DNA of 64,000 nt, taken from Paenibacillus sp. FSL H8-0079. Its GTDB lineage: Bacteria; Bacillota; Bacilli; Paenibacillales; Paenibacillaceae. The stretch is taken from assembly GCF_037991315.1 (NCBI RefSeq), contig NZ_CP150300.1, positions 1,178,001-1,242,000 of the forward strand, written 5' to 3'. This document shows positions 31,315 to 46,974 of the stretch, one piece after another. The translations under genes were made by a program, and so were the position numbers. The first letter of the stretch is position 1, and every line of letters starts with the position of its first letter. The notes under the pieces were generated by a model. The model had not been told where the DNA came from and did not search any database. It was given only the letters and a program-made list of their open reading frames with translations.

Positions 31315-31520
31315 AGGTGCGAATGCCAAGCTCACATGAAATCCCTGGGGGATTCGCACCTCAGAATTTGTCGAAAGGGTCATTTTTGTTCCCTTTTGGC
31401 AATAAATACTTGAATATTCTGGATGTTGTATATTAAAATGAATATAATAATTAGCTCGATAAACGAAAACACGTAATAAGTATATATACATATGCTGCTA
31501 TTACGTTTTTTTTTCGCTGG
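31315..31520 (+). promoter_or_regulatory. CRISPR leader 1
   Basis: It starts with a 47-nt inverted-repeat element: AGGTGCGAAT, then the invariant GCTCACATGA, then ATTCGCACCT (31315-31361). Six nt later comes TTGTCGAAA...GGCAA, then AT-rich DNA and a repeat-proximal TTACGT...TTTTCGCT. Here two extra G residues separate TTTTCGCT from the first repeat. Confidence 0.8.
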
Positions 31521-35715: not shown

Positions 35716-35908
35716 AGGTGCGAATAGGATGCTCACATGAAAACCCTGGGGGATTCGCACCTCAGAATTTGTCGAAATGGGCAAAATTGTTACCTTAAGG
35801 CAACACGTAGGCATATTTTGATTGAATAATGATATGGAAAGCCATAGAATAATAGTGGAAAAACGTGTTGTTAATGGCTCAGGTTGTTGAGATACGTGTT
35901 TTTTCGCT
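35716..35908 (+). promoter_or_regulatory. CRISPR leader 2
   Basis: The same 47-nt inverted-repeat element as in the other leaders (35716-35762, GCTCACATGA inside), then TTGTCGAAA...GGCAA, and TACGTGTTTTTTCGCT adjoining the first repeat. Confidence 0.8.
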
Positions 35909-37022
35909 GTCGCACTCCGTATGGAGTGCGTGGATTGAAATTGCTGAGAAACTTGGGGCGGCAATGGATAGTGAAAGTCGCACTCCGTATGGAGTGCGTG
36001 GATTGAAATCCTGAGGCTGTGCTGCCCGTTCCCATAATACCCGGTCGCACTCCGTATGGAGTGCGTGGATTGAAATATACCTTGCGGAACCTGAATCTGA
36101 ATGGAACCATGTCGCACTCCGTATGGAGTGCGTGGATTGAAATCGTAAAGTTTCCCTCTCTAAATCGTTCAGCAAGTCGTCGCACTCCGTATGGAGTGCG
36201 TGGATTGAAATATTTGTTCGGACACAGATCGTACCGTCTGACGTGCGTCGCACTCCGTATGGAGTGCGTGGATTGAAATTTCAACCTGAGCTTTAACCTT
36301 ATATACCGGTTCCAGGTCGCACTCCGTATGGAGTGCGTGGATTGAAATTATCTACATCGCCCATCTTAGTTAAATACATTTTCGTCGCACTCCGTATGGA
36401 GTGCGTGGATTGAAATCGAACTACGGCCGACGCCCTTATCGCAGAGAACAGTCGCACTCCGTATGGAGTGCGTGGATTGAAATCTCTCTATGTGCCTTAG
36501 TGTATAACTGATCAACCGGTCGCACTCCGTATGGAGTGCGTGGATTGAAATCGCTCATGTATTTCAAGTGGGAGATGAAGTAGGGTCGCACTCCGTATGG
36601 AGTGCGTGGATTGAAATGCCTTACGGACACTTCGTGCCCGCTTGTGCTACGCGTCGCACTCCGTATGGAGTGCGTGGATTGAAATAACCCACTCTGGCCC
36701 CAGTTCAAGCATGTCTTTTGGTCGCACTCCGTATGGAGTGCGTGGATTGAAATATTACTCGATTACAAGAGGTACAGGTACAATAGAGTCGCACTCCGTA
36801 TGGAGTGCGTGGATTGAAATTCTTGAAGAACAAATTTAGGATGACATTCGAAGGGTCTCACTCCGTATGGAGTGAGAGGATTGAAATGGCCCACCAAAGG
36901 AGAGATAACATACTTTGCAAAGTCGCACTCTACTTGAGTGCATGAAATGAAATCTTTGCAGTAACGTTGTTACAACAGATACGTGTGTCTGATCGTACTC
37001 CGTATGGAATGCAAATGTAATC
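35909..37022 (+). CRISPR. CRISPR array 2, type I-C, 14 intact plus 3 degenerate repeats
   Basis: Intact repeats start at 35909, 35977, 36044, 36111, 36179, 36247, 36316, 36384, 36451, 36519, 36585, 36653, 36721 and 36788. Degenerate copies at 36855, 36922 and about 36991 keep the 67-69-nt period. In the 36855 copy the stem base pair is changed on both arms (GTCTCACTCC with GGAGTGAG). The 36922 copy pairs GCACTC with GAGTGC around a new loop. The array is transcribed from the left leader and runs into a terminator. Confidence 0.96.
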
Positions 37023-37361: not shown

Positions 37362-37397
37362 TTCTGCTACATTGGTATAAGTAATTGTCACACTTGG
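37362..37397 (+). promoter_or_regulatory. Predicted Cascade target site overlapping an extended -10 promoter
   Basis: TTC (37362-37364), the type I-C PAM, precedes TGCTACATTGGTATAAG (37365-37381). This matches the start of the degenerate spacer at 37420 in 15 of 17 bases; the two mismatches are at positions 6 and 12. The site contains an extended -10-like TTGGTATAAG (37372-37381), whose transcript would begin at about the degenerate repeat itself. Confidence 0.6.
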
Positions 37398-37484
37398 TAT
37401 AAAGTGTGTGGATTGAAAATGCTAAATTGGCATAAGAGAGTTTTAAAACAAAGCGCATCCTCTTGGGGGTGCGCGATCAATCAT
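37387..37484 (+). ncRNA. Degenerate repeat-spacer-repeat unit, CreA/CreR-like crRNA-like RNA (predicted)
   Basis: A lone 33-nt repeat variant (37387-37419) keeps GTC, CACT, GTAT, AGTG and GTGGATTGAAA of the array repeat. Two stem pairs are changed on both sides, so the hairpin survives (CACACTT with AAGTGTG). A 32-nt spacer-like stretch (37420-37451) follows, then a second hairpin, CGCATCC with GGGTGCG (about 37452-37484), in the place of the next repeat. It is 365 nt past array 2 and outside any array. Known relatives are the CreA antitoxin RNA and Cas-regulating CreR RNAs, which use short seed matches so that Cascade represses a promoter without cutting. That this locus does so is inference. 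Confidence 0.6.
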
Positions 37485-37567
37485 TGTTAAAAGTGTAATA
37501 CATAATATTAAGTGAAAGATACCATAGTCAATACAAAGTTAAAGGAAGAAATTAAGGAGGGGTATAT

Positions 37568-38326
37568 TTGATAAATGGATTTTATTTAGATGAGTCTGGA
37601 AATAATGGATTTAAAGATATGCAAAAACAACCTGTAGTTTGTTATGGTGGGATTTTAGTTCCTAACGCTAGTGTTATAGAGCTTGAACGGGATTTTGAAG
37701 CACTTTCCTTTAAAGCAGCTTTGCAAATCAAAGGTGAGATAAAAGGGTTGACAATTAAACAAGTTAATACGTTACCATTCTTTCAAAACTATGAAATTCA
37801 CAGTAAGTCTTTCTTTGATGGGGACGATTTGTATTCTAAAATTCCGATCATTGATAGGTTTAAGCTTGCTGAAGAAATGTTAGAGCTTATTGATAAACAT
37901 GGGGGTAAAGTGCTTGCCTCTGTAATTAATAAAAATACATATAAACAAAATACAGGTGATACAGGTCATACTAACATGCACCAGCTTGGAATGAGTAATT
38001 TAATTCAATTAATAGAGAAAGAACTCATTCAAAGGAATGAAACAGGAATTGTTATTCCTGACAATGGGCGCGATGAAGAGAGAGAGCTTTTAATTCAAGT
38101 TATCCGACAGGAGACTACCAGTGATCGTATATATTATAGCTCTTTCCTTCAGAACTCACACCATTGCCAGTTAGTACAGTTAGCTGACATCATTGTATTT
38201 CTTACAACTATCTTTTTTCGATTTGAATATGGGTATGCACCTCGTAAAGCAAATAATAAAGAATTAATAAACCTATATCAAAAAAAGATAGCTCCTTTAT
38301 CCCCAACAGTATGGGAGTATAGGTGA
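37568..38326 (+). CDS. DUF3800 protein, predicted nuclease-fold
   Basis: A 252-residue protein of the DUF3800 family, which adopts an RNase H-like fold. The N-terminal acidic motif FYLDESGNNGF is intact, and the C-terminal QLVQLADIIVFLTT supplies the second conserved Asp. The central part (about 60-150) is helical. It starts at TTG 37568, 6-7 nt after AAGGAGGGG. The gene is distinctly more AT-rich than the cas operon and uses different codons, which suggests separate acquisition. It lies between the crRNA-like unit and the ACCAATG hairpin cluster, 420 nt before cas3. DUF3800 proteins are common in defence islands and on mobile elements; their substrate is unknown. A toxin-like role here is speculation. 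Confidence 0.75.
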   Translation: MINGFYLDESGNNGFKDMQKQPVVCYGGILVPNASVIELERDFEALSFKAALQIKGEIKGLTIKQVNTLPFFQNYEIHSKSFFDGDDLYSKIPIIDRFKLAEEMLELIDKHGGKVLASVINKNTYKQNTGDTGHTNMHQLGMSNLIQLIEKELIQRNETGIVIPDNGRDEERELLIQVIRQETTSDRIYYSSFLQNSHHCQLVQLADIIVFLTTIFFRFEYGYAPRKANNKELINLYQKKIAPLSPTVWEYR

Positions 38327-38332
38327 TTACAA

Positions 38333-38536
38333 TTAAGGGAGCGTACCAATGCACGCTCCCTTAAAGTGGTCGAACCAATGTGCGGCCACATATATAGTAT
38401 ACCCAATGTTGGACTTCATTATGCACAATACAAAAAGGGGAGATTCATATTATGTCGGACCAATGTACGAGTTAACATGAATTTTCCCTTTTAGAAAGTT
38501 AATTAGGTCGAACCAATGTGCGAGTCAATTAACTTT
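38333..38536 (+). repeat. Four hairpins with a shared ACCAATG loop
   Basis: Hairpin 1 (38333-38364): a perfect 12-bp stem TTAAGGGAGCGT with loop ACCAATGC. Hairpin 2 (38366-38389): stem GTGGTCG/CGGCCAC with loop AACCAATGTG. Hairpin 3 (about 38432-38493): a long stem with two wobbles and a few mismatches, tip GTCG-GACCAATGTA-CGAG. Hairpin 4 (38495-38536): AAAGTTAATT/AATTAACTTT, tip GTCG-AACCAATGTG-CGAG. The stems differ but the tip GTCGRACCAATGTRCG is kept. No T tracts follow, so they are not plain terminators. Confidence 0.75.
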
Positions 38537-38746
38537 ATCTAATCAATATTATACGCTGTATCTGAATCTGAGTCAATGAAATTAAGAAGTTTAATACTGC
38601 GTAATCGAGATAGAAACTAAGATTATTTTTGGAAATAAAAAGGAGTTTGTCGTATGGAGTCGAAATGTTAATATAAGTATTTTGTCCTAATTAATGAGTT
38701 TAGGTACCGGATTTGAATCTTTTTTCTGAAAGGAAGAAGTGGACTA
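38537..38746 (+). other. Region upstream of cas3 with a CRISPR-repeat fragment
   Basis: An AT-rich stretch of 210 nt without a gene. At 38651-38666, CGTATGGAGT directly followed by CGAAAT looks like an internally deleted piece of the array repeat. TTAATATAAG just after it could supply a -10 for the cas operon. The cas3 ribosome site is AAAGGAAGAAGTGG. Confidence 0.45.
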
Positions 38747-41203
38747 ATGACCTATATTGCTCATATCCGACAAAAGGATGGCGAAATACAGACCGTTCAA
38801 GATCATTTGGTGGAGGTTCAACAAGGAGCGGAGCAGGCTGGAGAGAAGATTGGTGTCAGATATTTGGCGGGGATTGCTGGCCTTTTACATGATATGGGGA
38901 AGAATACGGATGCTTTTCGAAATTACATTCAGGAAGCAGTAGCTCATCCCGATGCTCCTCCCCGTAAAGGTTCCGTAGATCACTCGACTGCTGGTGGCAA
39001 GCTGCTGCATCATCGTTACCATGTCAGTGGTGCAACGGCTCAGGACAAGTATACTGCAGAGTGGATTGCCAACTGTATTATCTCACATCATCAGGGTCTG
39101 AGAGATTACATCTCGCCTGATAAAACTTCACCATACCTGGAGCGTGTTGTTTCCAAGGAATTAGAACAATACGAGCAAGCGAAAGAAGAGTTTTTTAAGC
39201 ATAATCCTCCTGAACGTTTGGACAAGTTATTCGAATTAGCCACCACAGAGCTTCAACAATACATACAAATTATCAATAAGCATAAACTTCCACGTATTGC
39301 CGGGTCACTACTCATTAAATATATCTTTAGTTGCCTGATCGATGCAGATCGAACGAATACAAGACAATTTGAAGAAAATGAACCCTTCACAGAAGAATTA
39401 GATTACAAGTCTTTCTTTGAAACAAGCTATGAGCTACTGTCTCAACACCTAACCGGCCTTGAGCAAGGAAGTAAAGCAAACACACCCATTAATCGATTAC
39501 GGCGGGAAATGTCCAGCCAATGCGAAGAATTCGCACTTCGTCCTTCCGGCGTATACACCCTTTCTATACCAACGGGAGGGGGGAAAACACTTGCCAGTAT
39601 GCGTTACGCCCTAAAACATGCCATTGAACATAACAAGCAACGGATTATATATATCGTTCCGTACACCACCATCATTGAACAAAATGCGGCTGAGATCCGC
39701 AGTATTTTGAAGAACGATGACATGATTCTGGAGCATCACTCTAACGTTGTGGATGACATGGATGATGAACGGAAAGAGGGAGACGAAGGGGAAACTTATG
39801 ATGCGCGCAAACAGAATCTTAAACTTGCCCGTGATCACTGGGATCGCCCAATTATTTTTACGACGATGGTCCAGTTTCTAAATACTTTCTATGCGAAAGG
39901 AACCCGAAACGTACGAAGATTACATCAGCTTTCCAATGCAGTCATCGTATTTGATGAAGTGCAGTCTGTTCCTGTTCGATGTATCTCGCTCTTCAACGCT
40001 GCACTGAATTTCCTACATGTGATTGGACGCTCCAGTTTACTGCTCTGTACAGCTACGCAACCCGCACTTGATTTCGTGAAGCACAAACTTCATTTCTCGG
40101 AGCAGCCTGAAATTATACAGAATTTAGACGACGTTGGACGAAGTTTCAAACGAGTTGAGTTACATGATCTAACACAGGATACAGCCTCAGGCTGGGATGC
40201 AGAAGAATTATCTTCTTTTGTACAGGATCAAATGAGAGAAGTAAACAGCGTCCTGGTTATTTTGAACACGAAAATGGCGGTTCGTAAACTGTTTGAACAG
40301 TTGAATGAAGTGGAGTGGCTGCAAGACAGCGGCGTTCAGGTTGTTCATCTAAGTACCAATATGTGTGCTGCACATCGCAAAGAGGTCCTTTCTGGAGAGA
40401 ATGGCGTAGTTCAACGATTGGCAAAGGGAGAACGAATCATTTGCGTGAGCACACAGCTTATTGAGGCAGGCGTGAATATCAGCTTCGAATGTGTGATTCG
40501 ATCTTTGGCTGGTTTGGATTCGATTGCCCAGGCGGCTGGTCGATGTAATCGGCACGGCAAAGATGAGATTCGCAATGTGTATATTATCCGATCCTCGGAT
40601 GAAGTGTTGACTCACCTACCTGAGATTAAAATTGGTGCTGAGAAAACGGAGCGAGTGCTTCATGATTTCAAGGAAGATCCGGAGTCACTAGGGAATGATT
40701 TATTATCTTCAGAAGCAATCGCTCGTTATTTTAAATATTACTTTCACGATATTCAAGATAAAATGCATTACCCCATTCCTAAGCTCGAACAGAACTTGTT
40801 TGATCTGATGGACCGGAACCGCTATTACGTGGATGCATACCAAAAGAAACATGCTACAAAACCTGAGGTTGTTAATCATTATGCTATCGCTACAGCAGAG
40901 AAATATTTTGAAGCAATATCGACGAATGCCACTGCTGTACTTGTTCCTTACGGAGAAGAAGGCAGGGAACTGATTATTGACCTGAATGGTGAGTTGGAGC
41001 CGAGTGAATTGGGGGATCTGTTGCGAAAAGCCCAACAGTATACGGTGAACATCTATGATCACGAACTCAGGACATTAGAAAAAAGTGGGGACTTGTATCC
41101 ATTGTTACATGGTCACGTCCTTGCTCTACGGGAACCAGCATACTCTGAAGACTTTGGTGTGGAATCCAAAGGGGAGGGCGCTTGGGAAACGATGATGATA
41201 TGA
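38747..41203 (+). CDS. cas3: Type I-C Cas3 nuclease-helicase
   Basis: An 818-residue interference effector that nicks and degrades DNA recruited by Cascade. The N-terminal HD nuclease domain shows GLLHDMGKNTDAF (about residue 45) and CIISHHQG. The superfamily 2 helicase has Walker A IPTGGGKTLASMRYAL (about 275), DEVQS (about 403), CTATQPAL and motif VI AQAAGRCNRHGKDE (about 595). All catalytic residues are present. It is first in the seven-gene cas operon, separated from cas5c by 80 nt. Confidence 0.95.
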   Translation: MTYIAHIRQKDGEIQTVQDHLVEVQQGAEQAGEKIGVRYLAGIAGLLHDMGKNTDAFRNYIQEAVAHPDAPPRKGSVDHSTAGGKLLHHRYHVSGATAQDKYTAEWIANCIISHHQGLRDYISPDKTSPYLERVVSKELEQYEQAKEEFFKHNPPERLDKLFELATTELQQYIQIINKHKLPRIAGSLLIKYIFSCLIDADRTNTRQFEENEPFTEELDYKSFFETSYELLSQHLTGLEQGSKANTPINRLRREMSSQCEEFALRPSGVYTLSIPTGGGKTLASMRYALKHAIEHNKQRIIYIVPYTTIIEQNAAEIRSILKNDDMILEHHSNVVDDMDDERKEGDEGETYDARKQNLKLARDHWDRPIIFTTMVQFLNTFYAKGTRNVRRLHQLSNAVIVFDEVQSVPVRCISLFNAALNFLHVIGRSSLLLCTATQPALDFVKHKLHFSEQPEIIQNLDDVGRSFKRVELHDLTQDTASGWDAEELSSFVQDQMREVNSVLVILNTKMAVRKLFEQLNEVEWLQDSGVQVVHLSTNMCAAHRKEVLSGENGVVQRLAKGERIICVSTQLIEAGVNISFECVIRSLAGLDSIAQAAGRCNRHGKDEIRNVYIIRSSDEVLTHLPEIKIGAEKTERVLHDFKEDPESLGNDLLSSEAIARYFKYYFHDIQDKMHYPIPKLEQNLFDLMDRNRYYVDAYQKKHATKPEVVNHYAIATAEKYFEAISTNATAVLVPYGEEGRELIIDLNGELEPSELGDLLRKAQQYTVNIYDHELRTLEKSGDLYPLLHGHVLALREPAYSEDFGVESKGEGAWETMMI

Positions 41204-41283
41204 AATGGTCACGCTAACGTAGAGTGGGGAGTTTCATGACACATGTTTCTCCCTCCCATAGCCCATAGAAAGGAGCTGAAACG

Positions 41284-42006
41284 TTGAGAAACCAAATCGA
41301 ATTTGAGGTATCTGGTAAATATGCGCTATTTACCGATCCGCTCACGAAACTTGGAGGAGAAAAATTTTCTTATCAGATTCCTACATATCAAGCCCTCAAA
41401 GGGATCGTTGAATCCATTTACTGGAAGCCAACGCTGATCTGGATTATAGACGAAGTCCGTATCATGAATCCAATTCAAACGGAATCGAAGGGCATGCGTC
41501 CGATTGAATACAGCGGGGGCAATACACTGGCCTATTACACCTATTTAAGAGATGTTCGATATCAGGTGAAGGCTCATTTTGAATTTAATCCTCATCGTGA
41601 AGATCTGGTACATGACCAGAACGAACACAAACACCACAATATCGCAAAACGAGCTGTCCAGGTCGGAGGACGAAGAGACATTTTCCTGGGAACTCGTGAA
41701 TGTCAGGGCTACGTCGAACCTTGCCAGTTCGGTAAAGGAGAGAGCTTCTATGATCGTATAGGTGAGCTTGATTTTGGCACAATGCTACATGGAATCAGTT
41801 ACCCGGATGAAACAGGAAGCAATGAGAGAGAAGTTCGTCTGTGGAAAGCGAAAATGCAGCATGGTGTCATTCGGTTTATCCGTCCGGATGAATGTACATT
41901 GGTACGCAAAGCTGGAGAAGGTACAGCTAAAATTTTCGATGCAGGGAATATGCAATCTGTAGATGATCTTCACTCAGAATGGTTCGGAAATGAGGTGAGT
42001 GAATGA
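41284..42006 (+). CDS. cas5c: Type I-C Cas5 (crRNA-processing Cas5d)
   Basis: A 240-residue RAMP-fold protein. In type I-C it replaces Cas6, cutting the precursor at the base of the repeat hairpin, and it then caps the crRNA handle in Cascade. The beginning [21 protein letters not shown] and the tract [18 protein letters not shown] are typical of this subtype. The start is TTG 41284 after AAAGGAGCTG. The stop overlaps the cas8c start. Confidence 0.93.
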
Positions 42007-43934
42007 GCTGGCTGGCCAATTTGAGCAAAACGTATGATGATCATGCCGATGTCGTAGGGCAATTTGAAATGAAGAAAAGCGGCAAGGAATACGCCTTGAT
42101 TCCAATCTCGCACACAACCCAGACAGCGCATATTGAAGTGCATCTGAATGAAAAAGGAGATATCGTAAATGCCAAAGTAGTAGAAAAGAATGATGGCAGC
42201 ACGATTATCCCTTGCACCGAAGCTTCCGCAAGTCGAACGAGTGCGCCTGTACCGTATCCGCTTTTTGACAAGTTAGCCTATGTTGCAGGAGATTACACTC
42301 AGTTCTGCGGAGAAGCCAAGGGAACACCGTATCAGGATTATTTGATTCAATTGAAGGCTTGGTGCGAATCTCCATTTAGTCATCCTAAAGTACAGAGCGT
42401 ACTTAATTATGTCAGCAAAGGCACGCTCATCGCTGATCTGGTCGATAGAGGGATACTTCATGCAGATCACCAAGGAAAGCTATTGGAGAAGTGGACGGCA
42501 GGATCTGGTGAACAGGAAGGCGAGAAACCGAAAATTTTCAATGTTATTGCTGCGGATCAGAGTGGTGCATTTGTCCGATTTGCTGTAAATATTCCAGGAG
42601 AGCCCGAATCCAGACTATGGCGGGATGCTTCGGTACAACAATCATTTATCCAGTTCTACGAGATGAGTTTGCAGGACAAGGATATCTGTTTCGTGACAGG
42701 TAATTATCTGCCAGTTGCTGATAAACATGCTTCTCGCATACGTCACTCAGGGGACAAGTCCAAGTTGATCTCCGCCAATGACTCCAGTGGATTTACGTAT
42801 CGGGGGCGTTTTCGTACCAGTCGTGACGCAGCGGTAGTCAGCTACGAAGCTTCACAGAAGGGCCATAACGCATTGAAGTGGCTCATTGATCGACAAGGAA
42901 CCACTATAGACGGCAAAGTTTTTCTGGTGTGGGGTAGTACAAGTCTGGATATGCCAGAACCTCAAGAAGATTCTTTTAGTTTATGGGAAGATGAAGATGA
43001 TCATGAAGCACTTGCTGGTGGAGATACAACACATAAGGATTTTGCCTTGCAAATCAGGAAGGCGATTGGTGGCTATCGATACGATGGGGAGTATAACTCT
43101 AAGCATGAAGTGACTTTGATGACACTGGATGCGGCCACACCAGGGCGAATGTCGATTATGTATTATCGGGGTTTAGATCAGAACGAGTATCTGGACCGGA
43201 TAACAGCTTGGCATGAGAGTTGTTACTGGATACATCGTTATCGTAAAAATAAAAACGACAAACCCGTCTTGTTTATTGGGGCGCCCGCGACCAAAGACAT
43301 TGCTTTTGCAGCCTATGGCCCACGAGCTAGTGACAAAGTAGTTAAAGGACTCATGGAGCGGATGCTTCCATGTATCATTGATCAACGTCCCATTCCGCTG
43401 GATATTGTTCGCAGTTCTATCCAACGTGCATCCAACCCTGTAGGCATGGACAATTGGGAGTGGGAGAAAACACTGAGTATTACTTGCGCACTTGTTAATA
43501 AGAAGGAGGGGTATGGAGTGAGTCTGAATACAGAAACAACGGATCGTAGCTACGTATTTGGCAGAATGCTTGCCATTGCAGATGTATTAGAGAGAAGTGC
43601 TCTGGGTAAGGAGGAAAAACGGGCAACAAATGCCATTCGCTATATGAACGCCTTTGCGCAACGACCAGGCAGAACTTGGAGCATTATTCAATCTAATCTC
43701 CAACCTTACCAAGCGCGTATGGGGACGGGTGCCAGATATTATAATTCGTTGCTAGATGAAGTTGGAGACAAACTACAGTTGGAAGATTTTACGGACAAGC
43801 CACTTACGGGATTATACTTACTAGGTTTTTACAGTCAGCGTAATGATTTATATACAAGCAAGAAAGATAAGGAAGCTGCAGCTGTACTTGATAAAGACGA
43901 TGAAAACCAATTGAACGAACAAGGGGATAACTAA
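42003..43934 (+). CDS. cas8c: Type I-C Cas8 (Csd1), Cascade large subunit
   Basis: A 643-residue large subunit that recognises the PAM (TTC in this subtype) and, through an internal start, may also give the small subunit Cas11. The order is typical: an N-terminal [19 protein letters not shown], a central [20 protein letters not shown] and a C-terminal helical domain with [17 protein letters not shown]. It starts within the cas5c stop (ATGA). The C-terminal 130 residues, the expected Cas11 part, are intact. Confidence 0.94.
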
Positions 43935-44807
43935 ATGAGTACACTTGATCACAAAATCGATTTTGCTGTTGTGCTGTCTGTTCGTAATGCCAATCCAAAT
44001 GGTGATCCACTGAATGGAAACCGCCCTCGTCAGAACTATGATGGTTTAGGGGAAATCTCGGATGTATGCATCAAGCGTAAAATTCGTAACCGTCTGCAGG
44101 ATATGGGAGAGTCTATTCTCGTACAATCCGATGAAAAACGTAATGATAGTCACCGTTCCATTAAAGATCGTGTCGATGCCAATGAGAATGTGCAGGAACA
44201 TGCCAAAGGCAAGAAGGCAAATAAAGATCTATATGCTGAGGCTGCTTGTCAGTCATGGATTGATGTTCGTAGCTTTGGACAGGTGTTTGCTTTTGGTGGA
44301 GGGGAAAGTGTATCTGTGGGTATTCGAGGTCCGGTATCCATCCATACCGCTGTAAGCTTAGATCGGATTGATATTTCCAGCATGCAAATTACGAAGAGCG
44401 TAAACTCTGTTACAACGGCTAAAGATCCGGACAAAAAAGGATCGGATACGATGGGTATGAAGCATCGAGTAGATTTTGGAGTATATGTATTCTATGGCAG
44501 TATCAACACGCAACTGGCTGAGAAGACCGGCTTTACATATGAAGACGCAGAGAAAATTCGTGAATCACTGAGAACGTTATTTGAAAATGATACGTCCTCT
44601 GCCCGTCCTGACGGTAGTATGGAGGTGCACCAACTGTATTGGTGGGAGCATAGTTCCAAGATGGGGCAATATTCATCTGCGAAAGTACATCGTTCTCTGC
44701 ACATTGAATTGAAGCCAGACGTAGCAGAAGCAAAGTCTTACGACGATTATAACTATACGGTGGTGCCACTGGAAGGCTTGGCAGTCCAAGAATATGAAGG
44801 ACTATAA
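43935..44807 (+). CDS. cas7c: Type I-C Cas7 (Csd2), Cascade backbone
   Basis: A 290-residue backbone subunit that lines the crRNA guide and creates the six-nucleotide periodicity of recognition. It opens with IDFAVVLSVRNANPNGDPLN followed by NRPRQNYDGLGEISDVCIKR, diagnostic of Csd2. The GGGESVSVGIRGPVSI loop is also conserved. It ends inside the cas4 start region (14-nt overlap). Confidence 0.95.
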   Translation: MSTLDHKIDFAVVLSVRNANPNGDPLNGNRPRQNYDGLGEISDVCIKRKIRNRLQDMGESILVQSDEKRNDSHRSIKDRVDANENVQEHAKGKKANKDLYAEAACQSWIDVRSFGQVFAFGGGESVSVGIRGPVSIHTAVSLDRIDISSMQITKSVNSVTTAKDPDKKGSDTMGMKHRVDFGVYVFYGSINTQLAEKTGFTYEDAEKIRESLRTLFENDTSSARPDGSMEVHQLYWWEHSSKMGQYSSAKVHRSLHIELKPDVAEAKSYDDYNYTVVPLEGLAVQEYEGL

Positions 44808-45453
44808 CGAAGAGGATTATCTGCTGCTATCAGGTATTCAGCATTTTAATTTTTGTAGAAGGCAGTGGGCATTAATTCATATTGAACAACAGTGGGAAGA
44901 CAATGTGCGTACCATAGAGGGAGACCATTTGCATCGAAAGGCAGATCAACCAGCGCTTCGGGAGAAGCGAGGAGATAAACTGGTAGTTCGTGCACTACCT
45001 GTACAATCGAGAGAACTCGGAATCACAGGTATCTGTGATGTAGTTGAGTTCATTCGTGATCCAGATGGTGTTCCACTTGCTGGGGAGGAAGGGTTATACC
45101 TTCCTTTTCCTGTTGAATACAAACGGGGGAAACCCAAACGAAATGATTCCGATCACTCCCAATTGGTAGCACAAGTCATGTGTCTTGAAGAGATGCTTGT
45201 ATGTGATATCCACAAGGCCTATTTTTATTATGATGAGATCAAGCACCGGGTGGAAGTGGTCATTACTGAAGCAGATCGGGTGCGTGTTAGGGCCAGTATT
45301 AATGAGATGAGACACTACTTTGAACGCAACCATACGCCCAAAGCCAAGGCCGGACCACATTGCCTGAGTTGTTCCTTGAACAATATATGTGTACCGGATA
45401 TCTTGAATAAGCGTTCTGTTTCAAGTTACATCGAAAGCAGGTTGAATGAATGA
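44794..45453 (+). CDS. cas4: Cas4 adaptation nuclease
   Basis: A 219-residue RecB-like nuclease with an iron-sulfur cluster that trims prespacers and selects the PAM. Cluster ligands are seen in FNFCRRQWALIHIEQQW (first Cys, about residue 21) and GPHCLSCSLNNICVPDIL (three Cys, about 190-200). The nuclease core has GDHLHRKAD, GICDVVEF and PVEYKRGKPK. It overlaps both neighbours. Confidence 0.94.
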   Translation: MKDYNEEDYLLLSGIQHFNFCRRQWALIHIEQQWEDNVRTIEGDHLHRKADQPALREKRGDKLVVRALPVQSRELGITGICDVVEFIRDPDGVPLAGEEGLYLPFPVEYKRGKPKRNDSDHSQLVAQVMCLEEMLVCDIHKAYFYYDEIKHRVEVVITEADRVRVRASINEMRHYFERNHTPKAKAGPHCLSCSLNNICVPDILNKRSVSSYIESRLNE

Positions 45454-46481
45454 AAAAGCTGCTGAACACCTTATTTGTGACATTACCCGATACATACCTT
45501 GCATTAGATGGCGAAAATATTGTGGTGAAGCAGGAGGAAGAAATTCTTGCTCGCTATCCGCTTCATAATTTGGAGGCTGTATGCACCTTTAGCTATGCTG
45601 GAGTAAGTCCAGCATTGATGGGGGCTTGTGCGTCACGAAATGTTAGTTTGACGTTTATGACACGGACGGGACGATTCCTAGCACGTGTCATTGGTGAGGA
45701 TCGAGGAAATGTAGTCCTTCGTAAAGAACAGTACCGCATATCTGACAATGAGGAGCGCAGTGCGCGGGTTGCTCGTAATATGATTACAGGAAAGTTGTAT
45801 AACAACAAATGGATTTTGGAACGTGCAACACGAGATTATGCATTACGTGTAGACGTAGAACGGTTGAAAAAGGTAGCCAATTCACTTGGTGAGACGATGA
45901 AACTCTTACGTGAAGTGGAACAATTGGATATATTGCGTGGTTTGGAAGGCTCTGCTGCTGTGCAATATAATTCGGTGTTTGATGATCTGATTCTACAACA
46001 GAAGGAGTCATTTTACTTTTACGGACGGAGTCGGCGACCGCCCTTGGATAAAGTAAACGCGTTATTGTCCTTTGCTTACACTTTACTGGCTAATGATATG
46101 AAGTCTGCACTCGAATCAGTTGGACTTGATGCATATGTTGGTTTTTTGCATCGCGACCGTCCTGGCAGAGCTTCTCTCGCACTTGATATGATGGAAGAAC
46201 TCCGAGGAGTGTATGCCGATCGTTTTGTGCTTTCGCTCATCAACAAGAAGGTAGTTAACGATAAAGGATTTTATATCAAAGAAAATCTTGCCGTAATTAT
46301 GGATGATGATACACGAAAGAAAGTATTAAAAGCGTGGCAAGATCGTAAACAGGATAAGATTATGCACCCGTATTTAAATGAGAAAATACCTTGGGGTCTT
46401 GTACCATACACTCAAGCGTTACTACTGGCAAGATATATACGTGGGGACCTGGATGAGTATCCCCCGTTTCTGTGGAAGTAG
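45450..46481 (+). CDS. cas1: Cas1 integrase
   Basis: A 343-residue spacer integrase of the I-C lineage. The N-terminal beta domain begins LLNTLFVTLPDTYLALDGEN. The catalytic helical domain carries the metal ligands Glu in ALESVGLDAYVGFLHRDRPG and the following MMEELRGVYADRF. It starts within the cas4 stop (ATGA). Confidence 0.95.
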   Translation: MKKLLNTLFVTLPDTYLALDGENIVVKQEEEILARYPLHNLEAVCTFSYAGVSPALMGACASRNVSLTFMTRTGRFLARVIGEDRGNVVLRKEQYRISDNEERSARVARNMITGKLYNNKWILERATRDYALRVDVERLKKVANSLGETMKLLREVEQLDILRGLEGSAAVQYNSVFDDLILQQKESFYFYGRSRRPPLDKVNALLSFAYTLLANDMKSALESVGLDAYVGFLHRDRPGRASLALDMMEELRGVYADRFVLSLINKKVVNDKGFYIKENLAVIMDDDTRKKVLKAWQDRKQDKIMHPYLNEKIPWGLVPYTQALLLARYIRGDLDEYPPFLWK

Positions 46482-46490
46482 GTGTAATGA

Positions 46491-46781
46491 TTGCTTATTT
46501 TGATTACGTATGATGTAAGCACAATAGATAGTGAAGGCCGAAGAAGGCTATCCAAAGTGGCGAAAAAGTGTGTGGATCACGGTCAGCGAGTGCAGAACTC
46601 AGTGTTTGAATGTATACTGGACGCTACTCAATTTAGACGATTGAGATTTGAACTGGAAGAATTGATTGATAAGGATACAGATAGTCTTCGATTCTATAAC
46701 TTAGGCGATAATTACAAAAGTAAAGTCCAACATGTGGGTGCTAAAGATTCTTATGATATGGGCGATCCGTTAATACTTTAG
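46491..46781 (+). CDS. cas2: Cas2 integration subunit
   Basis: A 96-residue ferredoxin-like dimer that bridges two Cas1 dimers. The beta-1 strand and conserved Asp read LILITYDVSTIDSEGRRRL, followed by HGQRVQNSVFECILD. It starts at TTG 46491, after AGGTG and 9 nt past cas1. Its stop is only 1 nt from the leader element of array 3. Confidence 0.95.
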   Translation: MLILITYDVSTIDSEGRRRLSKVAKKCVDHGQRVQNSVFECILDATQFRRLRFELEELIDKDTDSLRFYNLGDNYKSKVQHVGAKDSYDMGDPLIL

Positions 46782-46782
46782 T

Positions 46783-46974
46783 AGGTGCGAATGCCAAGCT
46801 CACATGATTTCCCTGGGGAATTCGCACCTCGAAACTTGTCGAAAAGGTCTTTTTTGTGACCTTTTGGCAATGATTTATGGTCGAAAATTTGTGATAACCG
46901 TTTTAAAGTAGTAGAAATATCGAAAATACGCTAATAGTTATTCTTCAAGCATAGTTATTACGTCACTTTTCGCT
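46783..46974 (+). promoter_or_regulatory. CRISPR leader 3
   Basis: It begins right after the cas2 stop with the 47-nt inverted repeat (46783-46829). TTGTCGAAAAGGTC and GACCTTTTGGCAA then form a clean second hairpin, and TTACGTCACTTTTCGCT touches the first repeat. Confidence 0.8.

What the first reader, a model, noticed from the sequence alone, without database searches (positions are those of the whole stretch)
37362..37484. CreA/CreR-like guide: a lone degenerate repeat-spacer unit targets its own upstream promoter with a type I mismatch pattern
Seen: a 33-nt repeat variant outside any array (37387-37419), followed by a 32-nt spacer-like stretch and a second hairpin. Its first 17 spacer bases, TGCTAAATTGGCATAAG (37420-37436), align with TGCTACATTGGTATAAG at 37365-37381. 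The only mismatches are at positions 6 and 12, and the next is at 18, exactly the every-sixth bases flipped out in type I guides. TTC, the I-C PAM, lies directly before the target. Pairing fails beyond base 17, which in known CreA/CreR RNAs allows Cascade binding without Cas3 cutting. The target overlaps an extended -10 (TTGGTATAAG). Established: CreTA modules and CreR RNAs in other type I systems. Inference: this is a type I-C version, autoregulatory or controlling the DUF3800 gene behind it, so that loss of Cascade would de-repress it.
Basis: partly seen in the sequence, partly recalled or inferred. Interest (0 to 1): 0.95.

Follow-up and report, generated by a model that had tools for sequence, protein, structure and literature searches.

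The report
CRISPR guide silencing its own promoter
In a Paenibacillus type I-C CRISPR locus, a lone CRISPR-like guide unit lies between a gene's likely promoter and the gene and matches that promoter stretch, so it is predicted to make the CRISPR complex (Cascade) hold down a likely RNase-H-type nuclease gene (DUF3800) that would switch on if CRISPR is disabled.

Summary
Guide 37420-37436 matches 37365-37381 at all 15 non-flipped positions, with mismatches only at 6 and 12 and a TTC PAM. PAM plus seed occurs once in the 6.7-Mb genome. In P. pini, position 3 changed in guide and target together, while position 6 changed in both and stayed mismatched. In 121 type I-C loci, 47 of 227 lone repeat-like handles have such a nearby target, against 5 of 5217 array guides. 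Among 41 distinct pairs, position 6 matches in only 4 and position 12 in 14, but 13-15 in 37-39.

The target is most likely the DUF3800 gene's own promoter: DUF3800 relatives not linked to CRISPR carry the same extended -10 (TTGGTATAATTA) before the gene, so the guide unit sits between that promoter and the gene. The cargo is a predicted RNase-HII-like DUF3800 followed by four conserved RNA hairpins.

Best reading: a type I-C CreA-like, autoregulating guide that represses a DUF3800-RNA module (CrePA-like layout). Transcription, repression and toxicity are untested. It is a new variant of a known kind.

The parts
37362..37364 (+). TTC PAM next to the target
   Evidence: Sequence; TTC is the PAM used in the census and reported for H. 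hubeiense creTA (PMC8501985 section).
37365..37381 (+). Target (protospacer-like), overlapping the promoter's extended -10 TTGGTATAAG (37372-37381)
   Evidence: 15 of 15 non-flipped positions match the guide; only place in the genome with PAM plus seed; extended -10 shared with DUF3800 relatives not linked to CRISPR.
37387..37419 (+). First repeat-like element (psiR1) with intact 3' handle ATTGAAA
   Evidence: 26/33 identical to the array repeat; hairpin -8.4 kcal/mol, z -2.5; two stem pairs changed on both sides relative to the array repeat (4/21 G-C to A-U, 9/16 C-G to U-A; read directly from the sequences). The predicted transcription start (about 7 nt after the -10) falls here.
37420..37450 (+). 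Guide (psi-spacer, 31 nt); the 17-nt pairing part is 37420-37436
   Evidence: covariation with the target in P. pini.
37451..37483 (+). Second repeat-like element (psiR2) by structure: hairpin 37453-37474
   Evidence: Fold -15.6 kcal/mol, z -4.4; a hairpin-forming sequence stands at this place in P. pini, G041 and G003 (read by eye, not folded); sequence identity to the repeat not above chance.
37554..37560 (+). Ribosome-binding site AAGGAGG before the TTG start
   Evidence: Sequence.
37568..38326 (+). DUF3800 protein gene, predicted RNase-HII-like nuclease; likely repressed cargo
38336..38541 (+). Four hairpins with conserved loop core ACCAATG, downstream part of the DUF3800 module
   Evidence: Four cores at nearly the same spacing in G041, G003, P. 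pini and in CRISPR-unlinked G324 and G439; folds; no Rfam family at gathering score.
38747..41203 (+). cas3
   Evidence: NCBIfam TIGR01587 and TIGR01596 above cut-off.
41284..44807 (+). cas5c, cas8c, cas7c (I-C Cascade; Cas5c would process the guide)
   Evidence: TIGR01876, TIGR01863, TIGR02589, all above cut-off.

Best explanation
The unit at 37387-37483 is a type I-C CreA-like guide unit, lying between the DUF3800 gene's likely promoter and the gene, that is predicted to direct Cascade onto that same promoter and repress its own transcript and the DUF3800-hairpin-RNA module. Predicted course: RNA starts near 37388, at the first repeat-like element. Cas5c cuts at the hairpins and releases a crRNA-like RNA. 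Cascade loaded with it finds TTC + 37365-37381, pairs over about 17 nt, covers the extended -10 and blocks RNA polymerase, without enough pairing to call Cas3. Because the only promoter found for the guide is the one it hits, the loop would be homeostatic: a trickle of transcript keeps the guide supplied. If Cascade is lost, titrated or blocked by an anti-CRISPR, the RNase-HII-like DUF3800 protein and its hairpin RNA would be made in quantity, as an addiction or back-up (abortive) response. Shown by sequence: match, mismatch pattern, PAM, covariation, order of parts, shared promoter motif. Inferred: transcription, processing, repression, toxicity.
For: Match 15/15 at non-flipped positions with TTC PAM; unique in the genome. 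P. pini: position 3 C to A in both guide and target; position 6 changed in both and still mismatched. Census: 46 of 121 I-C loci hold such a unit; of 41 distinct pairs, position 6 matches in 4, 12 in 14, 13/14/15 in 38/39/37, 16 in 30, 17 in 18, 18 in 15, then 4-17. Controls: 47/227 ectopic against 5/5217 array and 0/333 two-mismatch handles. psiR1 keeps its stem through two double changes. The promoter belongs to DUF3800: TTGGTATAATTA lies about 43 nt before the likely start in G324 and G439 (37-38% protein identity, no repeat handle in the 10.7 and 3.7 kb held), and P. pini shares TTGGTATAATTAGT with G324; TTGGTATAATTAG occurs 0 times in the 119 fetched census loci (4.49 Mb counting both strands). 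RNase-HII-like fold. Seed rule 1-5 and 7-11 with 6 and 12 free, TTC PAM and operon auto-repression shown for H. hubeiense creTA (PMC8501985, passages and one section); psiR1 keeping and psiR2 losing the Cas5-binding handle matches PMC9458426 (abstract and one section).
Against: No RNA or expression data. Only two species keep an intact guide plus target (the window's, with SZ31, and P. pini); in a DNA search of 75 genus genomes the full unit was found only in the own genome and G040, its own species. The P. pini draft shows small frameshifts in cas3, cas5 and cas4, so its Cascade may be broken or the assembly poor. psiR2 is supported only as a hairpin. G041 keeps an intact DUF3800 gene although its -10 and part of psiR1 are deleted, so the gene is not simply lost with its control. 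The promoter has no good -35 and the consensus scan did not list it. A simple scan found no sigma-70-like promoter in the 430 nt before the window's cas3 either, so read-through into cas3 stays open. Toxicity of DUF3800 is unproven, and its hairpin RNA could be a separate antitoxin or guide.
Confidence: 0.8

Rival explanations
1. CreR-like control of the cas operon: the targeted promoter mainly drives cas3-cas5-cas8-cas7 through DUF3800, so the guide tunes Cascade levels and DUF3800 is a passenger.
For: 42 of 121 I-C loci carry comparable units in the cas3-cas5 gap; in 29 of these the target lies 16-18 (5) or 85-108 nt (24) before cas5. The scan listed no + strand terminator between DUF3800 and cas3 and no sigma-70-like promoter in the 430 nt before the window's cas3. 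The window's cas3-cas5 gap is only 80 nt and holds no unit.
Against: The target promoter motif is the one that precedes DUF3800 genes not linked to CRISPR. Short blocks before cas3 (such as GTCGAAA) are shared by loci with and without the DUF3800 cassette, a hint that cas3 has its own upstream element. cas3 lies 1.37 kb and four hairpins downstream.
Confidence: 0.12
2. The guide is purely autoregulatory or now inert, a leftover of a decayed array whose target match has no present effect.
For: Degenerate tail repeats of the array lie at 36855-37012. Two related loci, G041 and G003, have lost promoter and half of psiR1.
Against: Compensatory change at guide position 3 in P. pini and tolerance at position 6. 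psiR1 stem kept by double changes. No such match for 5212 of 5217 array guides. The I-C Cascade genes of this locus score above cut-off.
Confidence: 0.06
3. Chance similarity or a local DNA duplication produced the match.
For: TTGGTATAA occurs twice nearby, in the target and inside the psiR1 loop, hinting at local copying.
Against: A duplication would not spare exactly positions 6 and 12, nor place the copy directly after a repeat handle and the source directly after TTC. 41 distinct pairs (many from related loci, so not all independent) show the same rule. In 20 shuffles of each guide there were 2 hits for 5217 array guides and 0 for 560 ectopic ones.
Confidence: 0.02

Closest known systems
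CreTA, esp. H. hubeiense creTA operon (used with H. hispanica Cascade), PMC8501985
   Same: Two repeat-like elements around a spacer; TTC PAM; pairing at 1-5 and 7-11 with 6 and 12 irrelevant; one promoter for the operon, repressed by its own guide together with Cascade (passages and one section).
   Different: Here type I-C, guide first and a 252-aa protein gene second; no small RNA toxin between promoter and guide; pairing extends to position 16-17; cargo is DUF3800 plus hairpins.
CrePA (CreP protein toxin with CreA antitoxin; Shu et al., Nat Chem Biol, described in review PMC12737573)
   Same: Cascade plus a crRNA-like RNA represses a protein-coding cargo that is released by anti-CRISPRs (review section).
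   Different: The reviewed CreP typically carries a KilA-N domain and acts on FtsZ; here DUF3800 with an RNase-HII-like model, plus a hairpin RNA; toxicity untested. The primary paper was not seen.
CreR (Liu et al. 2023, Cell Host Microbe; described in review PMC12737573)
   Same: crRNA-like guide that directs Cascade to a promoter inside the CRISPR locus (review section); many cas3-cas5 gap units found here look like this.
   Different: Target is most likely the DUF3800 promoter, not a cas promoter. The primary paper was not seen, so whether it lists type I-C is unknown.
CRISPR-derived mini-arrays (Shmakov et al. 2023, NAR; not held)
   Same: As recalled from its abstract, not seen here: stand-alone repeats in type I and V-A loci with spacers partly matching promoters of cas or cargo genes. 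That general kind covers this unit.
   Different: Whether it lists type I-C, Paenibacillus or a DUF3800 cargo could not be checked.
C. rodentium type I-E CreTA (PMC12055562)
   Same: Guide with partial match next to a PAM in the promoter region of a toxin whose translation is needed; sits in the cas3-casA gap (passages).
   Different: Guide on the opposite strand of the toxin gene; subtype I-E; 96-bp toxin.
DUF3800 accessory proteins of V-A2 and VI-F loci (PMC10910872, PMC12669027)
   Same: Same family, RNase H fold, noted link to ncRNAs (passages).
   Different: There thought to be part of interference or crRNA handling in class 2 systems; no guide unit on their promoter was described in the passages seen.

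Membership tests
CreA-type guide (CreTA) | Repeat-like element with conserved Cas-binding 5' handle before the spacer | tested here: met
   psiR1 26/33 to repeat, handle ATTGAAA intact.
CreA-type guide (CreTA) | Second degenerate repeat after the spacer (most CreA) | tested here: inconclusive
   Stable hairpin at the right place but sequence identity 11/33, not above chance.
CreA-type guide (CreTA) | PAM-flanked partial match (positions 1-5, 7-11) to a promoter in the same locus | tested here: met
   kept in P. pini. That the stretch is a promoter is predicted.
CreA-type guide (CreTA) | Guide processed by the Cas endoribonuclease and acting through Cascade | not testable with these tools
   Cascade genes present and above cut-off; no RNA data.
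CreTA | Toxin is a small RNA (creT) under the targeted promoter | tested here: inconclusive
   The predicted start lies at psiR1 and the first gene is a 252-aa protein with Pfam support, so no creT precedes the guide; an RNA toxin among the four downstream hairpins is not excluded.
CrePA | Protein-coding cargo under the targeted promoter | tested here: met
   DUF3800 gene with RBS next downstream; promoter motif shared with CRISPR-unlinked relatives; by sequence only.
CrePA | Cargo toxic when Cascade is lost or inhibited | not testable with these tools
   Only RNase-HII-like fold and a PADLOC candidate match.
CrePA | KilA-N domain CreP (typical in the reviewed system) | tested here: not met
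   Pfam scan of the protein lists only DUF3800 at E <= 0.001.
CreR | Target lies in the promoter of the cas operon | tested here: inconclusive
   Target promoter motif matches that of CRISPR-unlinked DUF3800 genes, which speaks against; read-through into cas3 is not excluded and no cas3 promoter was seen by scan.
RNase HII-like nuclease | RNase H2/H3 fold with DE...D...D acidic residues | tested here: inconclusive
Racr (phage RNA anti-CRISPR) | Solitary repeat in a virus or plasmid genome | tested here: not met
   Unit is beside the host's own cas genes and has a target; one exact handle-seed pattern has 0 matches in viral contigs.

The most novel reading that the evidence does not exclude
A CRISPR-gated nuclease module: type I-C Cascade, through a guide carried in the 5' leader of the very mRNA it silences, holds down a DUF3800 RNase-H-like effector with its own four-hairpin RNA, so that anti-CRISPR attack or Cascade loss releases a second RNA-linked defence, with Cas5c cleavage of the leader as a further control on the mRNA.
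Probability: 0.45. Interest if true: 0.87.

Novelty: new variant of a known kind. Interest (0 to 1): 0.76.

Why it matters
It would extend guide-based addiction and cargo control to type I-C Cascade, which processes guides with Cas5c and not Cas6, and give a natural case where the guide is cut out of the leader of its target's mRNA. It links CRISPR control to a DUF3800-RNA module that also exists away from CRISPR, so one can follow how an independent module was put under Cascade. The census adds 41 distinct type I-C guide/target pairs (many from related loci) whose positional pattern shows the flipped-base rule by evolution alone. The pairs are short, well defined and ready for reporter tests.

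Tried and rejected
Considered and rejected: chance or duplication (controls); array remnant (covariation); Racr-like viral origin (one exact pattern, no match in viral contigs); plasmid spread (tblastn of DUF3800 against 72,556 plasmid records found 1, the G003 remnant). A link to a known RNA family failed: Rfam gave only sub-threshold hits for the window stretch and four loci, the best being STnc320 (E 0.018, 31 of 50 bits, opposite strand of a G031 hairpin). Enrichment of TATAAT in census targets was weak (35 of 41 against 26.4 expected) and is not used. The sigma-70 scan did not list the promoter, as it lacks a -35, nor one before the window's cas3. Sequence search against solved structures found nothing. 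DUF3800 homologues are few: 5 proteins of 669 candidates, 7 of 394 family genomes at E <= 1e-8, 6 of 392 order genomes at E <= 1e-25, five of them the same as before. The census misses units with other PAMs, targets beyond 600 nt or seeds with a mismatch, and some loci are cut by contig ends; the 75 of 121 loci without a hit are therefore not proven to lack one. The eight closest loci without DUF3800 (L057-L064) gave no hit.

Literature: full-text searches on CreTA, CreR, CreP and stand-alone repeats and on DUF3800 showed titles and abstract starts of the best 10-20 papers each (12), not all that held the terms; none of those listed names a type I-C guide of this kind or a DUF3800 cargo. The review PMC12737573 and PMC8501985 hold no 'I-C'. 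Shmakov et al. 2023 (PMC10450183) is not held; Liu et al. 2023 and Shu et al. were known only through the review. So absence from print is not shown.

Full report
WHAT IS THERE. The window lies in a Paenibacillus genome (own genome G000, 6.7 Mb; DUF3800 is identical in Paenibacillus sp. SZ31). It holds a type I-C CRISPR-Cas locus: arrays at 31.5-32.0, 35.9-36.9 and 47.0 kb onward and cas3, cas5c, cas8c, cas7c, cas4, cas1c, cas2 at 38747-46781, each with an NCBIfam match above cut-off. Between the second array and cas3 stand the finding's unit and a DUF3800 gene.

THE MATCH. The repeat variant (37387-37419) keeps the 3' handle ATTGAAA. Its seven differences from the array repeat include two stem pairs changed on both sides (4/21 G-C to A-U, 9/16 C-G to U-A; sequences), and it still folds as a hairpin. 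The next 17 bases match 37365-37381 at all positions but 6 and 12, with TTC directly before the target. TTC plus the seed occurs only there in the genome.

CONSERVATION. In 75 genus genomes the full unit was found by DNA search only in the own genome and G040, the same species. P. pini (L033/L051; DUF3800 90% identical) keeps promoter, target, guide and gene. Target TGATAAATTGGTATAAT and guide TGATACATTGGCATAAG. As target/guide: position 3 is C/C in the window and A/A in P. pini; position 6 is C/A in the window and A/C in P. pini, mismatched both times; position 12 is T/C in both; position 17 no longer pairs in P. pini. G041 (DUF3800 94%, intact) has a deletion that removes the target after its first five bases together with the first part of psiR1. 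G003 (a 543-kb replicon, Paenibacillus sp. 37) has lost the promoter and half of psiR1, its guide has a seed change (TGCCA), and its DUF3800 is truncated with stops. In this small sample no locus keeps the intact promoter without the guide; it is too small to weigh heavily. P. pini shows small frameshifts in cas3, cas5 and cas4, from poor assembly or real decay.

CENSUS. Cas7c-like genes were found in 144 of 394 family genomes at E <= 1e-30 (the weaker hits, 35-40% identical, look like other subtypes). Places with E <= 1e-50 were taken, except G040, which is the window's own species: 119 fetched loci plus the window and P. pini, 121 in all; 120 have cas3 in view and some are cut by contig ends. 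Ectopic handles followed by a guide with a TTC-flanked target within 600 nt were found in 46 of 121 loci, 41 distinct pairs. Positions 1-5 and 7-11 were required; of the rest, position 6 matched in 4, 12 in 14, 13 in 38, 14 in 39, 15 in 37, 16 in 30, 17 in 18, 18 in 15, 19-26 in 4-17. Control counts: 47 of 227 ectopic handles with 0-1 mismatch, 0 of 333 with two mismatches, 5 of 5217 array guides, and in 20 shuffles of each guide 2 hits for array guides and none for ectopic ones. The five array hits all have targets that run straight into a repeat, so they lie inside arrays (sequences). Guides that themselves hold repeat sequence were left out of these counts, and the limits were set after the looser scan. 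In 42 of the 46 loci the unit is in the cas3-cas5 gap: the target lies 85-108 nt before cas5 in 24, 16-18 nt in 5 and 130-2312 nt in 13, CreR- or CreTA-like. Four loci have a unit upstream of cas3: the window, P. pini, L109 and L170. Only the first two have DUF3800.

WHOSE PROMOTER. Two DUF3800 relatives with no repeat handle in the stretches held (G324, 37% identity, 10.7 kb; G439, 38%, 3.7 kb; G324 also gave no cas match) have TTTGGTATAATTA about 43 nt before the likely start codon. P. pini's target shares TTGGTATAATTAGT with G324 and TTGGTATAATTA with G439; the window shares TTGGTATAA. TTGGTATAATTAG occurs 0 times in the 119 fetched census loci (4.49 Mb counting both strands). So the targeted promoter is most simply DUF3800's old promoter, and the guide unit was placed between its -10 and the gene. 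Short blocks before cas3 (GTCGAAA and neighbours) are shared by loci with and without the cassette, a hint of a separate cas3 element; but no sigma-70-like promoter was found there in the window and no + strand terminator before it, so read-through is not excluded.

HOW IT LIKELY WORKS. Transcription from the extended -10 would start about at 37388, making guide and DUF3800 mRNA one transcript. Cas5c is expected to cut at the repeat-like hairpin(s). Cascade with the guide would sit on the -10. In H. hubeiense creTA a similar layout of one auto-repressed promoter, TTC PAM and pairing at 1-5 and 7-11 was shown by mutation, with 6 and 12 free (PMC8501985 section). The weak points are the lack of expression data, the two-species sample for the intact pair, and the unknown effect of DUF3800.

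VERDICT. It is a new variant of a known kind: a CreA-like guide in type I-C, set in the leader of a DUF3800-RNA module. The layout is nearest to CrePA, the regulation nearest to auto-repressed CreTA.

Noticed in passing
L065-L173, cas3-cas5 gap (e.g. L071 oriented 11696, L120 oriented 11665): 42 of 121 type I-C loci carry a minus-strand ectopic repeat-guide unit between cas3 and cas5; in 29 the TTC-flanked target lies 16-18 or 85-108 nt before cas5: a widespread type I-C CreR/CreTA-like element.
   Followed up: partly
38336-38541: Four RNA hairpins with loop core ACCAATG directly after DUF3800, conserved in number and nearly in spacing also in CRISPR-unlinked G324 and G439 (core AC[AC]CAACG), with no Rfam match at gathering score: a DUF3800-associated RNA.
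   Followed up: partly
L172, L097, L094, L130: Loci whose cas3-cas5 gap unit is followed by extra ORFs of 97-218 aa before cas5, possible further Cascade-controlled protein cargos; none was run against a family library.
   Followed up: no
L109 oriented 8679; L170 oriented 8624: Two further units upstream of cas3, with targets 279 and 150 nt downstream of the guide and small ORFs nearby.
   Followed up: no
L123 oriented 18652: A second unit with self-target lying far downstream of cas7, in addition to the gap unit of the same locus.
   Followed up: no
31315-31403, 35716-35804, 46783-46871: An 89-nt element before each of the three arrays, 84-89% alike: probably the array leader.
   Followed up: no
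36855-37012: Array end with increasingly degenerate repeats, separate from the unit.
   Followed up: no
L051 12150-16960: Small frameshifts in cas3, cas5 and cas4 of P. pini; draft error or decay is not decided.
   Followed up: partly
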